From assembly GCA_019120125.1 (NCBI GenBank), contig DWVR01000046.1, forward strand, positions 33,149-97,148: a stretch of 64,000 nt of DNA. The letters run 5' to 3'. The position numbers were made by a program, and so were the translations under genes. Position 1 is the stretch's first letter. Each line of letters opens with the position of its first letter. This document shows positions 8,986 to 60,898 of the stretch, piece by piece. The stretch is from Candidatus Phocaeicola excrementigallinarum (lineage in GTDB: Bacteria; Bacteroidota; Bacteroidia; Bacteroidales; Bacteroidaceae). The notes beneath the pieces were generated by a model. That model made no database searches. It was not told the DNA's origin and was given only the letters and a program-made list of their open reading frames with translations.

Positions 8986-11538
8986 ATGGACAGACAAAAC
9001 ACTGTAAAAAAGACATTTCCCGTACTCGACATGAGCTGCGCGGCCTGCGCGGCGCGCGTGGACAAGACGCTGAACAGGCAGACAGGCGTGCGCCATGCCA
9101 GCGTGAACTATGCGGCGGCCACCGCCACCGTGGAATACGAACCCGACAAGTGCTCGCCCGAAACACTGAGAGAGGCTGTCGTGGCGGCAGGCTACGACCT
9201 GGTCATCGAGACCGACCGGGAAAAACGGCGGCAGGAAGTGGACGAGGCACACGAGAAGAAATACCGGAGACTGAAATTCCGAACCACGTGGGCCATCCTC
9301 CTCTCGCTGCCCGTAGCCGTCATCGGCATGTTCTTCATGGACATGCCCTACGCCAACCATCTCATGTGGGTGCTGTCCACCCCCGTGGTGTGCTGGCTGG
9401 GACGGGATTTCTACATCAACGCATGGAAACAGCTCAAGCACCGCACATCGAACATGGACACACTGGTAGCCAACAGCACGGGCATCGCCTACCTGTTCAG
9501 CCTCTTCAACCTGTTCTTCCCCGACTTCTGGCTCCGGAGAGGCATCGAGCCGCATGTCTACTTCGAGGCCTCCAGCGTCATCATCGCCTTCATCCTGTTG
9601 GGGCGGCTGCTCGAGGAACGGGCCAAGGGAAACACCTCGGCGGCCATCAGGAAACTCATGGGACTGCAGCCCAAGACCGTCACGATGGTCACCGCCGGAG
9701 GGGAACTGAAGGAAGTGGCGGTGGAACAGGTGCGCATCGGCGACTGCCTGATGGTAAGGCCCGGTGAACGCATCGCCGTGGACGGCACGGTATGCGAAGG
9801 CAGCTCGTATGTGGACGAAAGCATGCTCAGCGGCGAGCCAGTGGCCGTACTGAAAAAGAAAGGGGAAAAGGTGTTCGCGGGCACCATCAACCAGAAAGGG
9901 AGCTTCCGGTTCACCGCCGGCAAGGTAGGGGCCGACACCATGCTGGCAAACATCATCCGCATGGTGCAGGACGCACAAGGCAGCAAGGCCCCGGTGCAGA
10001 AGCTGGTGGACCGCATCGCGGCCGTATTCGTGCCGGCCATCATGGGCACCGCCCTCCTGACGTTCATCCTGTGGATGGTGTGCGACCCGTCCGACGGGTT
10101 CACCCACGGACTGCTGGCGGCCGTCACGGTGCTGATCATCGCCTGTCCCTGCGCGCTGGGACTGGCCACCCCCACCGCCATCATGGTAGGCATCGGGAAA
10201 GGCGCCGGGCTGGGCATCCTCATCAAGGACGCGGAGAGTCTGGAGACGGCACGCAAAGTGAACGCCATCGTGCTCGACAAGACCGGAACCGTGACCGAAG
10301 GAAAGCCGGCGGTGACCGACCTGACCGAAGCTCTGGAACAAGAGGGACTGAGAGACCGCCTGTACAGTCTGGAGAAAATGTCGGAACATCCGCTTGCCGA
10401 AGCAGTGACCGGACGGCTCAAGGGCAACCTCCTTCCGGTAGAGAATTTCAGGAGCGTGACGGGCGAGGGAGTATGCGGTGACATAAACGGGACGACATAC
10501 TATGCCGGCAACCTCCGTCTGCTCACCGCACACCATATCCGCCCGTCTGACAGCATGCTGGAAGAGGCCCGCCGGCTGGAGGCCGACTCAAAGACCGTTA
10601 TCTGGTTTGCCGACAGCACACAGGCACTGGGACTGGCGGCCATCACCGACCGCATCAAGCCCACTTCCGCGGCCGCCGTATCACAGCTCAGAGCGATGGG
10701 CATCGATGTCTACATGCTCACAGGCGACAACGAGGGTTCGGCACGCAATGTGGCACAAAAAGCGGGCATCGCCCACTTCAAGGCCGGCGTGCTCCCCGAC
10801 CAGAAAGCCTCGTTCGTGAAATCGCTCCAGGCGGAAGGAAAAACCGTGGCCATGGTGGGCGACGGCATCAACGACAGCGCGGCACTGGCCCAGTCCGATC
10901 TCAGCATCGCCATGGGAAGGGGCAGCGACATTGCCATGGACGTGGCCAAGATGACCGTCATCTCGTCCGACCTCAACAAGATAGCCGACGCCATCCGCCT
11001 GTCGCGCATGACCGTCCGCACCATCCGCGAGAACCTGTTCTGGGCGTTCATCTACAACCTCATCGGAGTGCCCGTCGCCGCGGGCGTACTCTACCCGATA
11101 AACGGTTTTCTGCTCAACCCGATGATTGCCGGGGCGGCCATGGCCATGAGCAGTGTGAGCGTGGTGACCAACAGCCTGCGCCTGCGGAAAAAGAAACTCG
11201 GCGGCACTCCTGTCCCGGCATCCGCGCCCCAGGCCGAATCCCCCGTCGCGGAATCCCTTGCTGAGACGGAAAGCCCGGCCGTCACGGCTCCGGCAACAGA
11301 CGGGCCGCAAGCGTCCGGACAGGGAATCACACAGAAATACACCGTGGACGGAATGATGTGCGACCACTGCCGCACGCGTGTGGAGAAGGTACTTAACTCC
11401 ATCGACGGAGTCTCGGCCAAAGTGACCCTTACCCCACCCGAAGCCGTGGTCACGTTCAGCGGCCGGAAGCTCCCGCTTGAGGAGATACAGAAAGTGATTG
11501 ACGGGAAAGCGGGCGACTACACGTTGAAGGAGGCCTGA
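8986..11538 (+). CDS. copA: Heavy-metal (copper-type) translocating P1B ATPase
   Basis: N-terminal MSCAACAARVDK, CPCALGLATP, DKTGT, GDGINDS, plus a C-terminal second HMA domain (DGMMCDHCRTRVEKVL). Confidence 0.92.
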   Translation: MDRQNTVKKTFPVLDMSCAACAARVDKTLNRQTGVRHASVNYAAATATVEYEPDKCSPETLREAVVAAGYDLVIETDREKRRQEVDEAHEKKYRRLKFRTTWAILLSLPVAVIGMFFMDMPYANHLMWVLSTPVVCWLGRDFYINAWKQLKHRTSNMDTLVANSTGIAYLFSLFNLFFPDFWLRRGIEPHVYFEASSVIIAFILLGRLLEERAKGNTSAAIRKLMGLQPKTVTMVTAGGELKEVAVEQVRIGDCLMVRPGERIAVDGTVCEGSSYVDESMLSGEPVAVLKKKGEKVFAGTINQKGSFRFTAGKVGADTMLANIIRMVQDAQGSKAPVQKLVDRIAAVFVPAIMGTALLTFILWMVCDPSDGFTHGLLAAVTVLIIACPCALGLATPTAIMVGIGKGAGLGILIKDAESLETARKVNAIVLDKTGTVTEGKPAVTDLTEALEQEGLRDRLYSLEKMSEHPLAEAVTGRLKGNLLPVENFRSVTGEGVCGDINGTTYYAGNLRLLTAHHIRPSDSMLEEARRLEADSKTVIWFADSTQALGLAAITDRIKPTSAAAVSQLRAMGIDVYMLTGDNEGSARNVAQKAGIAHFKAGVLPDQKASFVKSLQAEGKTVAMVGDGINDSAALAQSDLSIAMGRGSDIAMDVAKMTVISSDLNKIADAIRLSRMTVRTIRENLFWAFIYNLIGVPVAAGVLYPINGFLLNPMIAGAAMAMSSVSVVTNSLRLRKKKLGGTPVPASAPQAESPVAESLAETESPAVTAPATDGPQASGQGITQKYTVDGMMCDHCRTRVEKVLNSIDGVSAKVTLTPPEAVVTFSGRKLPLEEIQKVIDGKAGDYTLKEA

Positions 11539-11574: not shown

Positions 11575-11660
11575 AAAACGCCTTGACGTTTCGGTCAAAA
11601 CGCCTTGACGTTTTTTAAAAACGCTTCGGCGTTTCAAGTAAAACGTCAAGGCGTTTTTTT
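11575..11660 (+). repeat. Modular 4 x ~22-bp palindromic intergenic repeat, copy A
   Basis: Units with ACG at 11578, 11600, 11621, 11643: CGCCTTGACG, CGCCTTGACG, CGCTTCGGCG, CGTCAAGGCG, each flanked by A/T runs. Confidence 0.9.
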
Positions 11661-11743: not shown

Positions 11744-12682
11744 TTATAGAATGTAAATGGCAGCACCAATCACACCGCCCATGACCATGTGCAACATATT
11801 GAACACAGATAACGCCTGAAAGAAATGCTGGAAGCTCATAATCTCTTCCAGACAGGTCATAAATGTGGCGCTAAGCACGGCATAGGCAAAACCACGGCAG
11901 AATATCGGCAGATAGAGTTGTGAGATATGAATGTCGGATGAGATTAAGAAATAATTTCCCAACAAATAGCCTATTATCCCTCCAAGTCCGATGACAATCA
12001 ACCTCAGATAATTGAACCGCCTAATGTGCATCCACCAATAGGCAAACAGGCATCCGGCCAATACCCCCGCCAGCACAGGCCAGTCCAATTGTACACTTGT
12101 CATCGTACCATAGTGCATCACCTCCTCCAAATAGACTTCTTCCAACACATGCTCTGTGGCAAGGAACATTTCTACCAGTGTAATCAGGATGAATACGGGC
12201 AGCAGATGGCGGTATGTCCACATTTTCGGTTCATAATAGGGGTGACGGATGGTGAACATCCTCCAGACGCAAAAAAATAGCGTAACGATGATAACCATGC
12301 TTAATTGGCGGATCACCGGACTGTTCCACCGGTCATACCAGTCGCCGTAGTTGAACAAGTAAGCAATCTCCAACAAAAGCATCGCCCACAGCACCGCTCC
12401 CAGCCAATCGATGCCAAACAAAGGAAACTTCTTGAACATACGGAAATGGCGTGTGCAGGCAGTCAATATCAGCAAGTCTGTCATCATGATGCCGCAGATG
12501 AACCATTGCATGTAATCCCAATGGTAGTAATACATCAGGTAAGTGGCAAGCAAGTCGGACAACTGCATACTGCCCAAGATCACGATATGCAGCATCGGAA
12601 AGAATACGGTAAAATCCCGTGTCGGCGTCATCCAAAGCTGAATGTTCGACATACATTCAAACGTGCCTTGTATCTTGCACAT
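11744..12682 (-). pseudogene. MFS (DHA2-like) transporter, probably N-terminally truncated
   Basis: About 9 hydrophobic segments; in-frame hydrophobic sequence TFLPLLWLVCFIEG continues upstream of the first ATG to a stop near 12770 without an upstream ATG. Confidence 0.55.
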
Positions 12683-14033: not shown

Positions 14034-17000
14034 ATGCCATTGGAACGCGACTACCGCATCGACCTGCAGTCGTTCGATCTGTTCGACCGTATCGAGCGCA
14101 TCCACCGCCGTCCTCCCGTAAGCCTGGAGAACGTGCGGGCCAAATATGTTTTGCTCTATAAGGTGCTGGAGGAGGCCGCCTACGAGCTGACGGCACGCAG
14201 CACCCTGGCTTTCGCCAACCTGTTCTCGCGGCTCGACTATATCGGCAAGGAGAAGAAACTGACACCCTCCGACCGGTATGCCGTGCAGACCATGCGGAGA
14301 AACTGCAACAGGGCGATGGACGGACGGCTGAAACCCGACCTGCAGGAATATCTCTACGACCTGAGGGCACTGGTACGTTTCGTGTCACTGGGATTCGAGG
14401 CCGACATACCCGCCTCGCTCCTGCCGGAAATCCCCCACTCCAACCGTCCCTACTCAGGCACGAGACTCTCGCAGATTCCCTACGTGAGGGCCTGTGTGAC
14501 AGGATGGGACGACACACGGATATTCGCCTCGTGCGACAGCGAGGAGGAGCCGTTTATCGTGGTGAACTATGCCAAGGGAGGCTATGAGGGCGACCTGACC
14601 TACATCAGGGACCTGCTGCGCGAGAACCTCCCCATCAACCTGCTCCACGTGAAGGTGGACGAGGAAAACCATTATATTCCGGGACTGATCGTCATCTGGC
14701 CCGACTACCTCATCGACATCAGCGCGCTCGCCGCCTGCTTCAGGGAATACGGGCACCATCCGCTCAATTTTTTCATGAACCGCATCAAGCCGCGGGCCAA
14801 CACGGCGCCGATCCTGTTGGGAAACCTGGCAGGACGGCTGCTTGACGAGTACATCAACGAAAAGCCCGACTGCCCGGTGGACTACGTGAGGTCGCTCAAC
14901 ACCTTCTTCGCCTCGTCGGCACTGGAGTTCTGCACCTGCAGGCTACCGGAGGATTTCCATGCCTCGGCAAAAAGCCAGATGACGCACATCCGGTCGTTCA
15001 TCCACGACATCCTTCCAGCCAACATCCCCGGCTTCGACCGACGGAACACCCTGCTCGAAGCCTCCTTCATCTGCGAGAGACTCGGCCTGCAAGGACGTGT
15101 GGACATGATGCAGAAGGATCTCAAGATACTCATCGAACAGAAATCGGGAAAGCGCGACGAGCTGAACCGCCGCCACAAGGAGGACCATTTCGTGCAGATG
15201 ATGCTCTATCAGGGCGTACTGACGTACAACTTCGGACAGAAAGCCAAGGACATGCAGACTTTTCTGCTCTACTCGAAATACACGGACGGACTGATGCTGG
15301 AACACTTCTCCGAAAAGCTGTTCCGTGAAAGCATCCGGCTGAGAAACCGCATCGTGGCACAGGAAATGGAACTTGCGGAAGGGGGGATCGCCACGGTGAC
15401 GGAAGGACTGAGCACCGACCTGCTCAACGAATACGGACAACACAGCCGGCTTTGGAACGACTACCAGGAACCGGAACTCCAGAAGGCCATCACTACCCTG
15501 AAACGGTGTACGCCACTCGAAAAGGCCTACTTTGAAAGGCTCTTCACCTTTGTGGCGAAAGAGACCGTGCTGAACAGGACAGGAGGCAACAACAGCTCCT
15601 CGAAAGGATTCGCGGCCGTCTGGCACAATCCGGTCAGGGAAAAGCTGGAAGCGGGGAACATCCTGCCGGGACTGACCCTCACCGACCGCCGGAGAAGCTC
15701 GCCGGAAAAAGGGTACGACCTGATCACGCTGGGTATCCCGCAGCTGGAGGACGACTTTCTGCCCAACTTCCGCACAGGCGACATCGTGATTCTCTATGCC
15801 TATACCGGAGAACCGGACGTGAGGGAACAGATCCTGATGAAGGGAAACATCGTCAGCCTGCAGACGGACAGCGTCACCATACAGCTCCGCAACGGACAAC
15901 AGAACAAGGACATCATCGGAAACGCGGACGACCGTTTCTGCATCGAGCACGACTCGTCGGACATCTCGTCCGCCAACGCCATACGAGGACTATACGCTTT
16001 TCTGGCGGCCACCGACGAGCGGAAACGCCTGCTGCTCTGCCAGCGTATGCCCACCGCCGACACCTCACGCAAGCTGAACGGCCACTACGGACGGTTCGAC
16101 GGACTGGTGCTGCAGGAGAAACAGGCCAACGACTACTTCCTGCTGGTCGGTCCCCCGGGCACGGGAAAAACCTCGTGCGCCCTGCGGTACATGGTGGAAG
16201 AGGCACTGACAGAGCCCGGCACCTCAATCCTCCTGCTCTCATACACCAACCGCGCCGTCGACGAGATCTGCGCCATGCTGACGGATTCCGGCATTGCCGA
16301 CAGCCATCCCTTCATCCGCATCGGACATGAGCTCTCGTGCGACAGACGGTTCCGGAAATACCTGCTCAAACACCGCATCGGCGACTGCCCGAAACTGAAC
16401 GACATCCGGCGGCGGATTGCGGAGACACGGCTGTTCGTGGGCACCACCACCGCCATAAGCAACCGCTCATACCTGTTCGACATCAAGCGGTTCGACACCG
16501 CCTTCATCGACGAGGCCTCGCAGATTCTGGAGCCGGACCTCATCGGAATCCTTTCCGCACGGAGCGGAACGGGAAACGCCGTCGGAAAGTTCGTGCTCAT
16601 AGGCGACTACAAGCAGCTGCCCGCCATCGCCCTTCAGAACAAGGACGACGCGGCGGTAAACGACCCGCTCCTGCTGGACATCGGGCTGAGGGACTGCCGC
16701 GACTCGCTGTTCGAGCGGCTGTACCGGAAATCGCCGGAACAGTTCCGCAGCATCCTCCGGAAACAGGGACGCATGCATCCTGCCGTCGCCGAGTTTCCCG
16801 ACTTCACGTTCTACTTCCATGAACATCTGGAGCCGGTGCCTCTGCCGCATCAGGAAGAGGATTGTCCTTATACCGGCACGACCGGTCCGCAAGACAATGT
16901 CGACCGCCTGCTCCTGTCACGCAGAATGGTGTTCATCCCTTCCGGTATGCCGGAGGACAGCCCCACCCTTTCCGACAAGGCCAATCCGGAAGAGGCCCGC

Positions 17001-18311
17001 GTCGTGGCCTGCCTCCTGCGGCACATCTACCGTCTGACGGGCGACACGTTCCATCCCGGCAAGACGGTGGGGGTCATCGTGCCCTACCGCAACCAGATCG
17101 CGATGATCCGCAAGGAAATCGCCGGACTGGACATTCCGGCCCTGCTTGACATCTCCATCGATACGGTGGAAAGATACCAGGGAAGCCAGCGCGACGTGAT
17201 CATCTACTCGTTTACGGTGCGGAACCTCAGCCAGCTGAATTTTCTTACGGCCAACACCTTCACCGAGGGAGAACAGACCATCGACCGGAAACTGAACGTG
17301 GCCATCACCCGGGCACGCAAGCAACTGCTTCTGACGGGCAACCCACAGGTGCTGGGAGCCAACCTCACTTTCCACAAGCTCATGGAATATATCCGGATGC
17401 ACAACGGATACATCGAGACAGACACCGAAAGCTTCTGCCAGAGAAACTTCAACCTTCCGGAATATGAGACGGACTGGGACCTGAAAGACACTTCCTATCC
17501 GCTTCCGGAAACATTCGGGCGGACTTTCAGGAAACTGGCCGGAAATCTGGACACGGAAAACCTCTCACCGGAAACGGTCACCGCATACCGGGAACGGACT
17601 TCCTACGGACGCATGGACTTCCACCTTCCGCCGGGAAAAGACACGTCGGAACGTGTGCTTCTGTATACGCGCCTGTACATGCGCAAACAGTTTCTGGCGG
17701 CACACTCCGCCTTCGAAGCCTGCGGCAACTGGTGGAGAGACACCATCAGAAACGTGTCGGGACGGATCGTGTTCTGCGACTTCTCGTGCGAGCCGGGAGC
17801 TTCCGCCCTGGCATTCGCCGGAATGTGCCGCACACTGCCCCATGCGGACCTCACCGTGGCCGGCCTGTATCCGATGACGGAACTGGCTGACCTGGCGGCA
17901 CGTTTTTTCGGGGAAATGTATCCGCAAACGGAATTCTTCACCGCCCCCCGGCTGGAGGACGTGAAGAATGAGTTCTGGACAGCCCATTCCGTGCTCTCCG
18001 AACTGATTGTATTCCATTTCGGAAATCTTTTCGACCGGATTTCTCCCGATGAGGCACGCGGTCTGGCCCTCCAGATCAACCGACTGACACACAGCCGTCC
18101 GCTGAACAGGTACGCCACCTTCTTCCGGGCGGACAACGGCATACGTTCCGACTGCCACTCCTACAGGACATTCTGCAAACATCTCACTCCGGCACTGCAT
18201 CCGCTTCATCCGGACATGCCGTTCACGGGAAAACTCTATTACAGACAGACTGAAGGTTGTCCGGCAGAAGACGGATTTTTATATGAACTGAGAACAAACG
18301 AAATGAAATGA
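14034..18311 (+). CDS. Dna2-like protein: PD-(D/E)XK (Cas4/RecB-type) nuclease + SF1B (UPF1/DNA2-like) helicase + C-terminal extension
   Basis: GRVDMMQKDLKILIEQKSGK nuclease motif; GPPGTGKTS Walker A; FIDEASQ; IGDYKQLPAI; VERYQGSQRDVII; LNVAITRARKQL. Confidence 0.85.
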   Translation: MPLERDYRIDLQSFDLFDRIERIHRRPPVSLENVRAKYVLLYKVLEEAAYELTARSTLAFANLFSRLDYIGKEKKLTPSDRYAVQTMRRNCNRAMDGRLKPDLQEYLYDLRALVRFVSLGFEADIPASLLPEIPHSNRPYSGTRLSQIPYVRACVTGWDDTRIFASCDSEEEPFIVVNYAKGGYEGDLTYIRDLLRENLPINLLHVKVDEENHYIPGLIVIWPDYLIDISALAACFREYGHHPLNFFMNRIKPRANTAPILLGNLAGRLLDEYINEKPDCPVDYVRSLNTFFASSALEFCTCRLPEDFHASAKSQMTHIRSFIHDILPANIPGFDRRNTLLEASFICERLGLQGRVDMMQKDLKILIEQKSGKRDELNRRHKEDHFVQMMLYQGVLTYNFGQKAKDMQTFLLYSKYTDGLMLEHFSEKLFRESIRLRNRIVAQEMELAEGGIATVTEGLSTDLLNEYGQHSRLWNDYQEPELQKAITTLKRCTPLEKAYFERLFTFVAKETVLNRTGGNNSSSKGFAAVWHNPVREKLEAGNILPGLTLTDRRRSSPEKGYDLITLGIPQLEDDFLPNFRTGDIVILYAYTGEPDVREQILMKGNIVSLQTDSVTIQLRNGQQNKDIIGNADDRFCIEHDSSDISSANAIRGLYAFLAATDERKRLLLCQRMPTADTSRKLNGHYGRFDGLVLQEKQANDYFLLVGPPGTGKTSCALRYMVEEALTEPGTSILLLSYTNRAVDEICAMLTDSGIADSHPFIRIGHELSCDRRFRKYLLKHRIGDCPKLNDIRRRIAETRLFVGTTTAISNRSYLFDIKRFDTAFIDEASQILEPDLIGILSARSGTGNAVGKFVLIGDYKQLPAIALQNKDDAAVNDPLLLDIGLRDCRDSLFERLYRKSPEQFRSILRKQGRMHPAVAEFPDFTFYFHEHLEPVPLPHQEEDCPYTGTTGPQDNVDRLLLSRRMVFIPSGMPEDSPTLSDKANPEEARVVACLLRHIYRLTGDTFHPGKTVGVIVPYRNQIAMIRKEIAGLDIPALLDISIDTVERYQGSQRDVIIYSFTVRNLSQLNFLTANTFTEGEQTIDRKLNVAITRARKQLLLTGNPQVLGANLTFHKLMEYIRMHNGYIETDTESFCQRNFNLPEYETDWDLKDTSYPLPETFGRTFRKLAGNLDTENLSPETVTAYRERTSYGRMDFHLPPGKDTSERVLLYTRLYMRKQFLAAHSAFEACGNWWRDTIRNVSGRIVFCDFSCEPGASALAFAGMCRTLPHADLTVAGLYPMTELADLAARFFGEMYPQTEFFTAPRLEDVKNEFWTAHSVLSELIVFHFGNLFDRISPDEARGLALQINRLTHSRPLNRYATFFRADNGIRSDCHSYRTFCKHLTPALHPLHPDMPFTGKLYYRQTEGCPAEDGFLYELRTNEMK

Positions 18312-27801: not shown

Positions 27802-27886
27802 AAAAAACGCCTTGACGTTTTGGTCAAAACGTCAAGGCGTTTTAAGTGAAACGTCGAAGCGTTTTTAAAAAACGTCTAGACGTTTT
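27802..27886 (-). repeat. Modular 4 x ~22-bp palindromic intergenic repeat, copy B
   Basis: On - strand: AAAACGTCTAGACGTTTTTTA-AAAACGCTTCGACGTTTCACTT-AAAACGCCTTGACGTTTTGACC-AAAACGTCAAGGCGTTTTTTA. Confidence 0.9.
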
Positions 27887-60814: not shown

Positions 60815-60898
60815 AAAACGCCTTGACGTTTTATCCAAAACGGCCTGACGTTTTTAAAAAACGCTTCGGCGTTTCAGACAAAACGTCAAGGCGTTTTT
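60815..60898 (+). repeat. Modular 4 x ~22-bp palindromic intergenic repeat, copy C
   Basis: AAAACGCCTTGACGTTTTATCC-AAAACGGCCTGACGTTTTTAA-AAAACGCTTCGGCGTTTCAGAC-AAAACGTCAAGGCGTTTTT. Confidence 0.9.

What the first reader, a model, noticed from the sequence alone, without database searches (positions are those of the whole stretch)
11575..11660. Modular four-unit palindromic intergenic element (copy A) containing a C(UUCG)G mini-hairpin
Four ~18-bp units in register (spacing 22, 21, 22 bp). Units 1 and 2 (AAAACGCCTTGACGTTTT) are the reverse complement of unit 4 (AAAACGTCAAGGCGTTTT). Unit 3 is itself a hairpin, AAACGC-TTCG-GCGTTT, with the very stable C(UUCG)G tetraloop. As RNA it can form a long 1:4 or 2:4 stem enclosing the UUCG hairpin, ending in seven U. 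The two alternative partners for unit 4 suggest a possible switch, not just a terminator. It lies 3' of copA facing a convergent gene.
Basis: partly seen in the sequence, partly recalled or inferred. Interest (0 to 1): 0.72.

Follow-up and report, generated by a model that had tools for sequence, protein, structure and literature searches.

The report
Species-tuned palindrome arrays dotting bacterial chromosomes
The four-part palindrome is one of about 90 copies of a DNA element between genes in a gut bacterium; each related species carries its own fixed number of parts and its own core letters, often at the same places, which suggests docking sites for an unidentified DNA-binding protein rather than a simple RNA terminator or switch.

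Summary
Copy A (11575-11657) is one of three copies in the window and of an estimated 90 in the genome, a Phocaeicola-like Bacteroidaceae. The unit is AAAACG-N6-CGTTTT at a strict 22 (rarely 21) bp pitch, and 56 of 60 arrays have exactly four units. 32 of 62 genomes of the genus carry such arrays; 8 of 30 genera sampled in the family do; 0 of 147 others in an order-wide sample do. Unit number and core letters are species-specific: a sister species has three units and CTTCGG/CCGAAG cores. At ten orthologous sites both species have an array, 4 units versus 3 in nine. Arrays lie outside called genes in this genome, usually just after a stop codon, never within about 8.8 kb of another, and crowd the terminus half of the one near-complete chromosome. 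The 1:4 or 2:4 RNA-switch reading is not supported: no covariation, UUCG not strand-biased, 13 of 53 arrays in divergent gaps. No Y1/RAYT transposase accompanies the arrays. Best reading: phased DNA sites for an unidentified cooperative DNA-binding protein.

The parts
11575..11592 (+). copy A unit 1, AAAACGCCTTGACGTTTC
11597..11614 (+). copy A unit 2, AAAACGCCTTGACGTTTT
11618..11635 (+). copy A unit 3, AAAACGCTTCGGCGTTTC (core CTTCGG)
11640..11657 (+). copy A unit 4, AAAACGTCAAGGCGTTTT (reverse complement of unit 2), followed by a T run
27804..27886 (.). copy B: four units at 27804, 27826, 27848, 27869 (pitch 22, 22, 21)
60815..60897 (.). copy C: four units at 60815, 60837, 60858, 60880 (pitch 22, 21, 22)
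8986..11538 (+). copA-like heavy-metal P-type ATPase whose stop codon lies 36 bp before copy A (context only)
11744..12682 (-). convergent 312-aa ORF, no Pfam match (context only)

Best explanation
The element is a phased array of dyad DNA sites. Each 18-bp unit is two abutting 9-bp half-sites (AAAACGnnn) for a dimeric DNA-binding protein; three to five dimers sit two helical turns apart on one face of the DNA and bind cooperatively. About 90 arrays, kept more than about 9 kb apart and placed just after genes, would mark the chromosome for one trans-acting factor. When that factor's preferred triplets or assembly size change in a species, arrays across the genome follow. SHOWN: architecture, pitch, unit-number bias, core vocabulary, half-site rule, positions, spacing. 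INFERRED: the protein, cooperative binding, and a chromosome-scale role (nucleoid organisation or segregation, in the manner of Noc, SlmA or MatP site sets).
For: Pitch is 22 or 21 bp in all 169 adjacent strong-unit spacings of the fetched G000 stretches, never 17-20 or 23-42, although the linker is only 3-4 nt: a helical-register constraint. Frame letters are about 94% conserved at orthologous sites whose flanking 60 bp average 57% identity (unrelated flanks give 32% by the same method). Unit number: 4 in 56/60 (G000), 3 in 27/40 (G003), 3 in 9/10 (RGIG7480), 5 in 6/7 (G059). Ten orthologous sites outside near-identical segments: G000 has 4 units in all, G003 has 3 in nine. Palindromic (homotypic) cores are avoided: 8 observed against 48.8 expected, and 1 against 20.3. 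No neighbour within 6 kb in either species against about 19 unordered pairs expected. Terminus-half concentration in G007, Rayleigh p 0.006.
Against: No trans-acting protein was identified; half the genus lacks the arrays, so the function is dispensable. Avoidance of symmetric cores is unexpected for a plain homodimer. Pairing signals (3:4, 1:3) and the A1>G over T18>C excess (38 versus 20) in transcribed orientation hint at an RNA or single-strand role, though transcription-linked mutation could also cause the latter. The terminus bias rests on one genome and 34 arrays chosen by a five-unit pattern.
Confidence: 0.5

Rival explanations
1. A non-autonomous mobile or selfish palindromic repeat (REPIN/MITE-like) spread by an unknown transposase with target immunity, later diversified.
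For: High copy number, intergenic only, patchy presence (32 of 62 in the genus, sporadic in other genera), minimum spacing as target immunity would give, a few long shared blocks between arrays up to 54 bp.
Against: No Y1/RAYT transposase in G000 or the heavy carriers, no target-site duplication (z -0.2 and 0.5), no near-identical recent copies among the sampled arrays of G000 or G003, same position but different unit number and cores in sister species, strict helical pitch.
Confidence: 0.25
2. Transcription terminators or mRNA 3'-end elements: hairpins formed between units stop or protect transcripts, on both strands.
For: 78% of arrays next to a 3' end lie within 60 bp of a stop codon against 48% for random placement in the same gaps; strong predicted fold; 3:4 pairing p 0.002 in G000 and 1:3 pairing p 0.002 in G003 in transcribed orientation.
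Against: 13 of 53 arrays in divergent gaps, similar to background gaps; no 1:4 covariation; no folding advantage of the transcribed strand; constant unit number and rigid pitch are not needed for termination; minimum spacing of about 9 kb.
Confidence: 0.15
3. Recombination sites: conserved inverted arms with an asymmetric 6-bp core, as in tyrosine-recombinase sites.
For: Arm-core-arm layout; cores are almost never symmetric, as directional overlap regions are; unit gain/loss seen at one site (L030 4 units, L200 3 units).
Against: Arms of about 6-8 bp are short for such enzymes; inner cores are highly diverse within one genome so most pairs could not recombine; positions are stable between species.
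Confidence: 0.07

Closest known systems
REP / BIME / REPIN families with RAYT (GTAG- and CGTC-tagged REPs, PMC3733652; REPINs, PMC3116915)
   Same: Short dispersed intergenic palindromes, often grouped in opposite orientation and close to gene 3' ends; species-specific variants.
   Different: No GTAG tag, no RAYT gene in the carriers, rigid 22-bp pitch with a fixed number of units per species, minimum spacing between arrays, shared positions with turned-over content.
BrickBuilt MITE of Porphyromonas gingivalis (PMC4596501)
   Same: Bacteroidales intergenic element built of about 23-nt repeats, multi-copy, non-identical copies.
   Different: BrickBuilt is a direct tandem repeat of 1 to 22.8 units with leader and tail and terminal inverted repeats; here the units are palindromic, of fixed number, with no leader, tail or target duplication.
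PINSR of Prevotella intermedia (PMC4755523)
   Same: Lineage-specific high-copy intergenic repeat in Bacteroidales, positions mostly conserved between strains.
   Different: 188-bp single repeat; no phased palindromic units are described in the text read.
Chromosome-marking site sets (Noc, SlmA, MatP sites; from general knowledge)
   Same: Tens of dispersed palindromic sites for one trans-acting protein, with macrodomain bias.
   Different: Those are single short sites; here 3-5 phased sites per locus with species-specific number and core; protein unknown.
ArgR ARG-box pairs (from general knowledge)
   Same: 18-bp imperfect palindromes with about 21-bp centre spacing bound cooperatively: the same geometry.
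   Different: Local operators of arginine genes, not genome-wide arrays; no sequence relation was tested.

Membership tests
REP/REPIN (RAYT-mobilised) | a RAYT (Y1 transposase, PF01797) in the genome | tested here: not met
   0 matches in G000, G003, G007, G023, G035, G040, G059; only G043 among the clearly array-positive genomes has one
REP/REPIN (RAYT-mobilised) | GTAG (or CGTC) tag unpaired at one end of each hairpin | tested here: not met
   units begin AAAACG and end CGTTTT on both sides; CGTC when present lies inside the unit
MITE | target-site duplication flanking the element | tested here: not met
   longest direct match between flanks equals shuffles in both species
MITE | near-identical recent copies | tested here: not met
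   longest exact block shared by two arrays 54 bp (G000) and 28 bp (G003); G035 has look-alike copies at three contig ends, so not excluded there
Intrinsic terminator | G+C-rich hairpin plus U run at transcript 3' ends | tested here: inconclusive
   fold and T run present, mostly after stop codons, but 13 of 53 arrays in divergent gaps; transcript ends not testable
Rfam RNA family | match to a curated covariance model | tested here: not met
   only two tRNAs in the window reach gathering score
Phased operator array for a cooperative DNA-binding protein | constant helical register of dyad sites | tested here: met
   152 spacings of 22 and 17 of 21; 43-44 are skipped units
Phased operator array for a cooperative DNA-binding protein | a protein that binds it | not testable with these tools
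   needs pull-down or DAP-seq
Chromosome-marking site set (Noc/SlmA/MatP-like) | non-random chromosomal distribution | tested here: met
   no neighbours within 6 kb; terminus-half concentration in one genome

The most novel reading that the evidence does not exclude
A previously undescribed chromosome-marking system: a trans-acting factor, gained and lost within Phocaeicola, reads multi-site DNA arrays whose unit number and half-site triplets are set species by species, so that about 90 loci per genome are rewritten in concert while their positions are kept.
Probability: 0.35. Interest if true: 0.88.

Novelty: new variant of a known kind. Interest (0 to 1): 0.7.

Why it matters
If it is a chromosome-marking system, it would add a lineage in which a set of about 90 DNA sites changes in concert, letting co-evolution of a DNA-binding protein with its whole site set be read by comparing sister species. 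It would also give Bacteroidota, where I know of no such site set, a candidate for genome organisation. If it is instead a mobile element, it spreads without the RAYT system and with strong spacing control, also unexplained.

Tried and rejected
RNA switch with 1:4 or 2:4 pairing: no covariation. UUCG tetraloop as the key feature: CTTCGG/CCGAAG is simply the common core of the sister species and is not strand-biased. REP/RAYT: family absent in the carriers. MITE with target duplication: none. Trans factor by neighbourhood: genes beside arrays, and beside the unusual 5-7-unit arrays, are ordinary and diverse. Plasmid or phage origin: no match to copy A in PLSDB or INPHARED; the viral-contig scan did not answer twice. 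A shared flanking inverted motif enclosing arrays: only weak enrichments, no left-right covariation. Literature: six open-access searches and five papers read in part gave no description of this element; the supplement of the human-microbiome structured-RNA survey (PMC8040213, 250 palindromic candidates) could not be read, so an unannotated entry there cannot be excluded.

Full report
OBSERVATION. The window holds two more complete copies, at 27804 and 60815. The 18-mer occurs 11 times within 3 mismatches in the window against 0.03 expected, and 230 times within 2 mismatches in the genome against 0 for the reversed control. Stretches around the hits hold 60 arrays; scaling by a two-unit pattern gives about 90 arrays in 2.75 Mb.

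ANATOMY. The unit is AAAACG-N6-CGTTTT. Of 60 arrays, 56 have exactly four units. Consecutive strong units are 22 bp apart in 152 cases and 21 in 17; other values are only skipped units at 43-44. The N6 core behaves as two triplets read inward from the arms. G000 uses mainly TCA and CCT, its sister G003 mainly CCG and CTT, and G007 mainly CAA and CAC. The two triplets of one unit are nearly always different: palindromic cores number 8 against 48.8 expected in G000 and 1 against 20.3 in G003. So units have a direction although their arms are symmetric.

DISTRIBUTION. The generic two-unit pattern is found in 32 of 62 genomes of the genus, with up to 259 hits and reversed-control counts of 0 or 1. 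In a family sample 29 of 400 genomes and 8 of 30 genera are positive, strongly only in this genus and in a few genomes elsewhere, such as G401 with 38 hits. In an order-wide sample only G000 itself is positive, 0 of the other 147. Named members include Bacteroides caecigallinarum, B. mediterraneensis and an uncultured Bacteroides sp.. Placing the genus as Phocaeicola is my inference from these names.

SPECIES-WIDE TUNING. Arrays of G003 (the uncultured Bacteroides sp.; same contigs as G102) have mostly three units (27 of 40) and CTTCGG/CCGAAG outer cores. RGIG7480 has three (9 of 10), G059 five (6 of 7), and G023 plus G040 five (4 of 5). The two genomes G000 and G003 align as a mosaic of 80-99% identity. 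In near-identical segments, taken here as introgressed, the four-unit arrays of G000 type recur almost unchanged in G003; one of them (L200) has three units where G000 (L030) has four. At ten more divergent orthologous sites both have an array at the same spot: G000 has four units in all ten, G003 three in nine, with different cores. There the 60-bp flanks are 57% identical on average (32% for unrelated flanks by the same method), while the frame letters stay at 94%. At L028, L059 and L037 the aligned G003 region shows no array. The G003 stretches were chosen because they hold arrays, so the sharing rate is biased upwards.

POSITION. Of 53 arrays with called neighbours in G000, none is inside a called gene, 27 are in codirectional gaps, 13 in convergent and 13 in divergent gaps, close to the background of gaps of at least 100 bp. 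Six G003 arrays overlap ORFs called by the same crude method. Where a 3' end is present, 78% of arrays lie within 60 bp of a stop codon against 48% for random placement in the same gap. No array has a neighbour within 6 kb, against about 10.5 (G000) and 8.4 (G003) unordered pairs expected; the smallest gaps are 8.8 and 8.9 kb. In G007 (main contig 4.03 Mb of about 4.1 Mb) 34 five-unit arrays centre on 1.81 Mb, Rayleigh p 0.006. GC skew (positive near 0.3 Mb, negative at 2.7-3.1 Mb) and rRNA strands (+ at 0.79 and 0.96 Mb, - at 2.65 Mb) place the terminus in that half. Gene calls are my own ORF and codon scoring, and G000 and G003 are drafts.

RNA TESTS. Orientation-free core pairing: 1:4 z -0.2, 1:3+2:4 z 0.7, 1:2+3:4 z 1.5, 2:3 z -3.1 in G000; 1:3 p 0.03 in G003; in five-unit arrays 1:3+3:5 p 0.016 and 2:3+3:4 z -4.2. 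In transcribed orientation 3:4 (G000) and 1:3 (G003) reach p 0.002; several pairs were tested, so these are modest. Frame changes in that orientation favour A1>G over T18>C (38 versus 20), with 17 versus 11 for the inner wobble-compatible class; transcription-linked mutation could do this too. Transcribed and antisense strands fold alike. A role in RNA 3' ends is therefore possible but does not explain the pitch, the unit number or the minimum spacing.

MECHANISM. The rigid pitch of two helical turns, dyad arms, constant unit number, asymmetric triplets and genome-wide spacing are best met by cooperative binding of a dimeric protein to double-stranded DNA. Concerted change of number and triplets at conserved positions is what co-evolution with one trans factor predicts; occasional exchange between arrays (54-bp shared block at most) may contribute. 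The factor is unknown. RAYT is excluded in the carriers and neighbouring genes give no candidate.

KNOWN RELATIVES. No Rfam match. REP families need a GTAG or CGTC tag and, for GTAG REPs, a RAYT (PMC3733652). BrickBuilt (PMC4596501) and PINSR (PMC4755523) are Bacteroidales repeats of different build. I found no description of this element, with the gaps in the literature search stated above.

Noticed in passing
L032:6093, L041:5980, L043:6017, L058:1138, L064:6042, L078:5906 (own genome): A second short palindrome, GACA-N3-TGTC (often CGGACAAATTGTCAG), lies within 100 bp of arrays about 10 times more often than in other intergenic DNA (10 versus 7 sites).
   Followed up: partly
G000 versus G003 (L028-L085 versus L161-L200): The two sister genomes are a mosaic of 80-85% and 97-99% identical segments, as if large pieces were exchanged between species.
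   Followed up: partly
L230:9910-10060 (G035): Seven-unit array made mostly of direct repeats with one identical spacer (tcctgt), unlike all others; three look-alike arrays (L235, L238, L239) stand at contig ends and may belong to a longer repeat.
   Followed up: no
G401 (genus g46) and G197, G211, G224 (genus g59): Isolated array-rich genomes in genera otherwise mostly free of arrays, suggesting lateral gain or repeated loss; good places to look for the trans factor.
   Followed up: no
window 14034-18311 (+): 1425-aa protein with AAA_11/AAA_12 superfamily-1 helicase domains directly after a 270-aa ORF with no Pfam match.
   Followed up: no
L084 and L074 (own genome): Single isolated units in stretches whose sister-species counterparts (L173, L181) carry three-unit arrays, possibly decaying arrays; exact correspondence not checked.
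   Followed up: no
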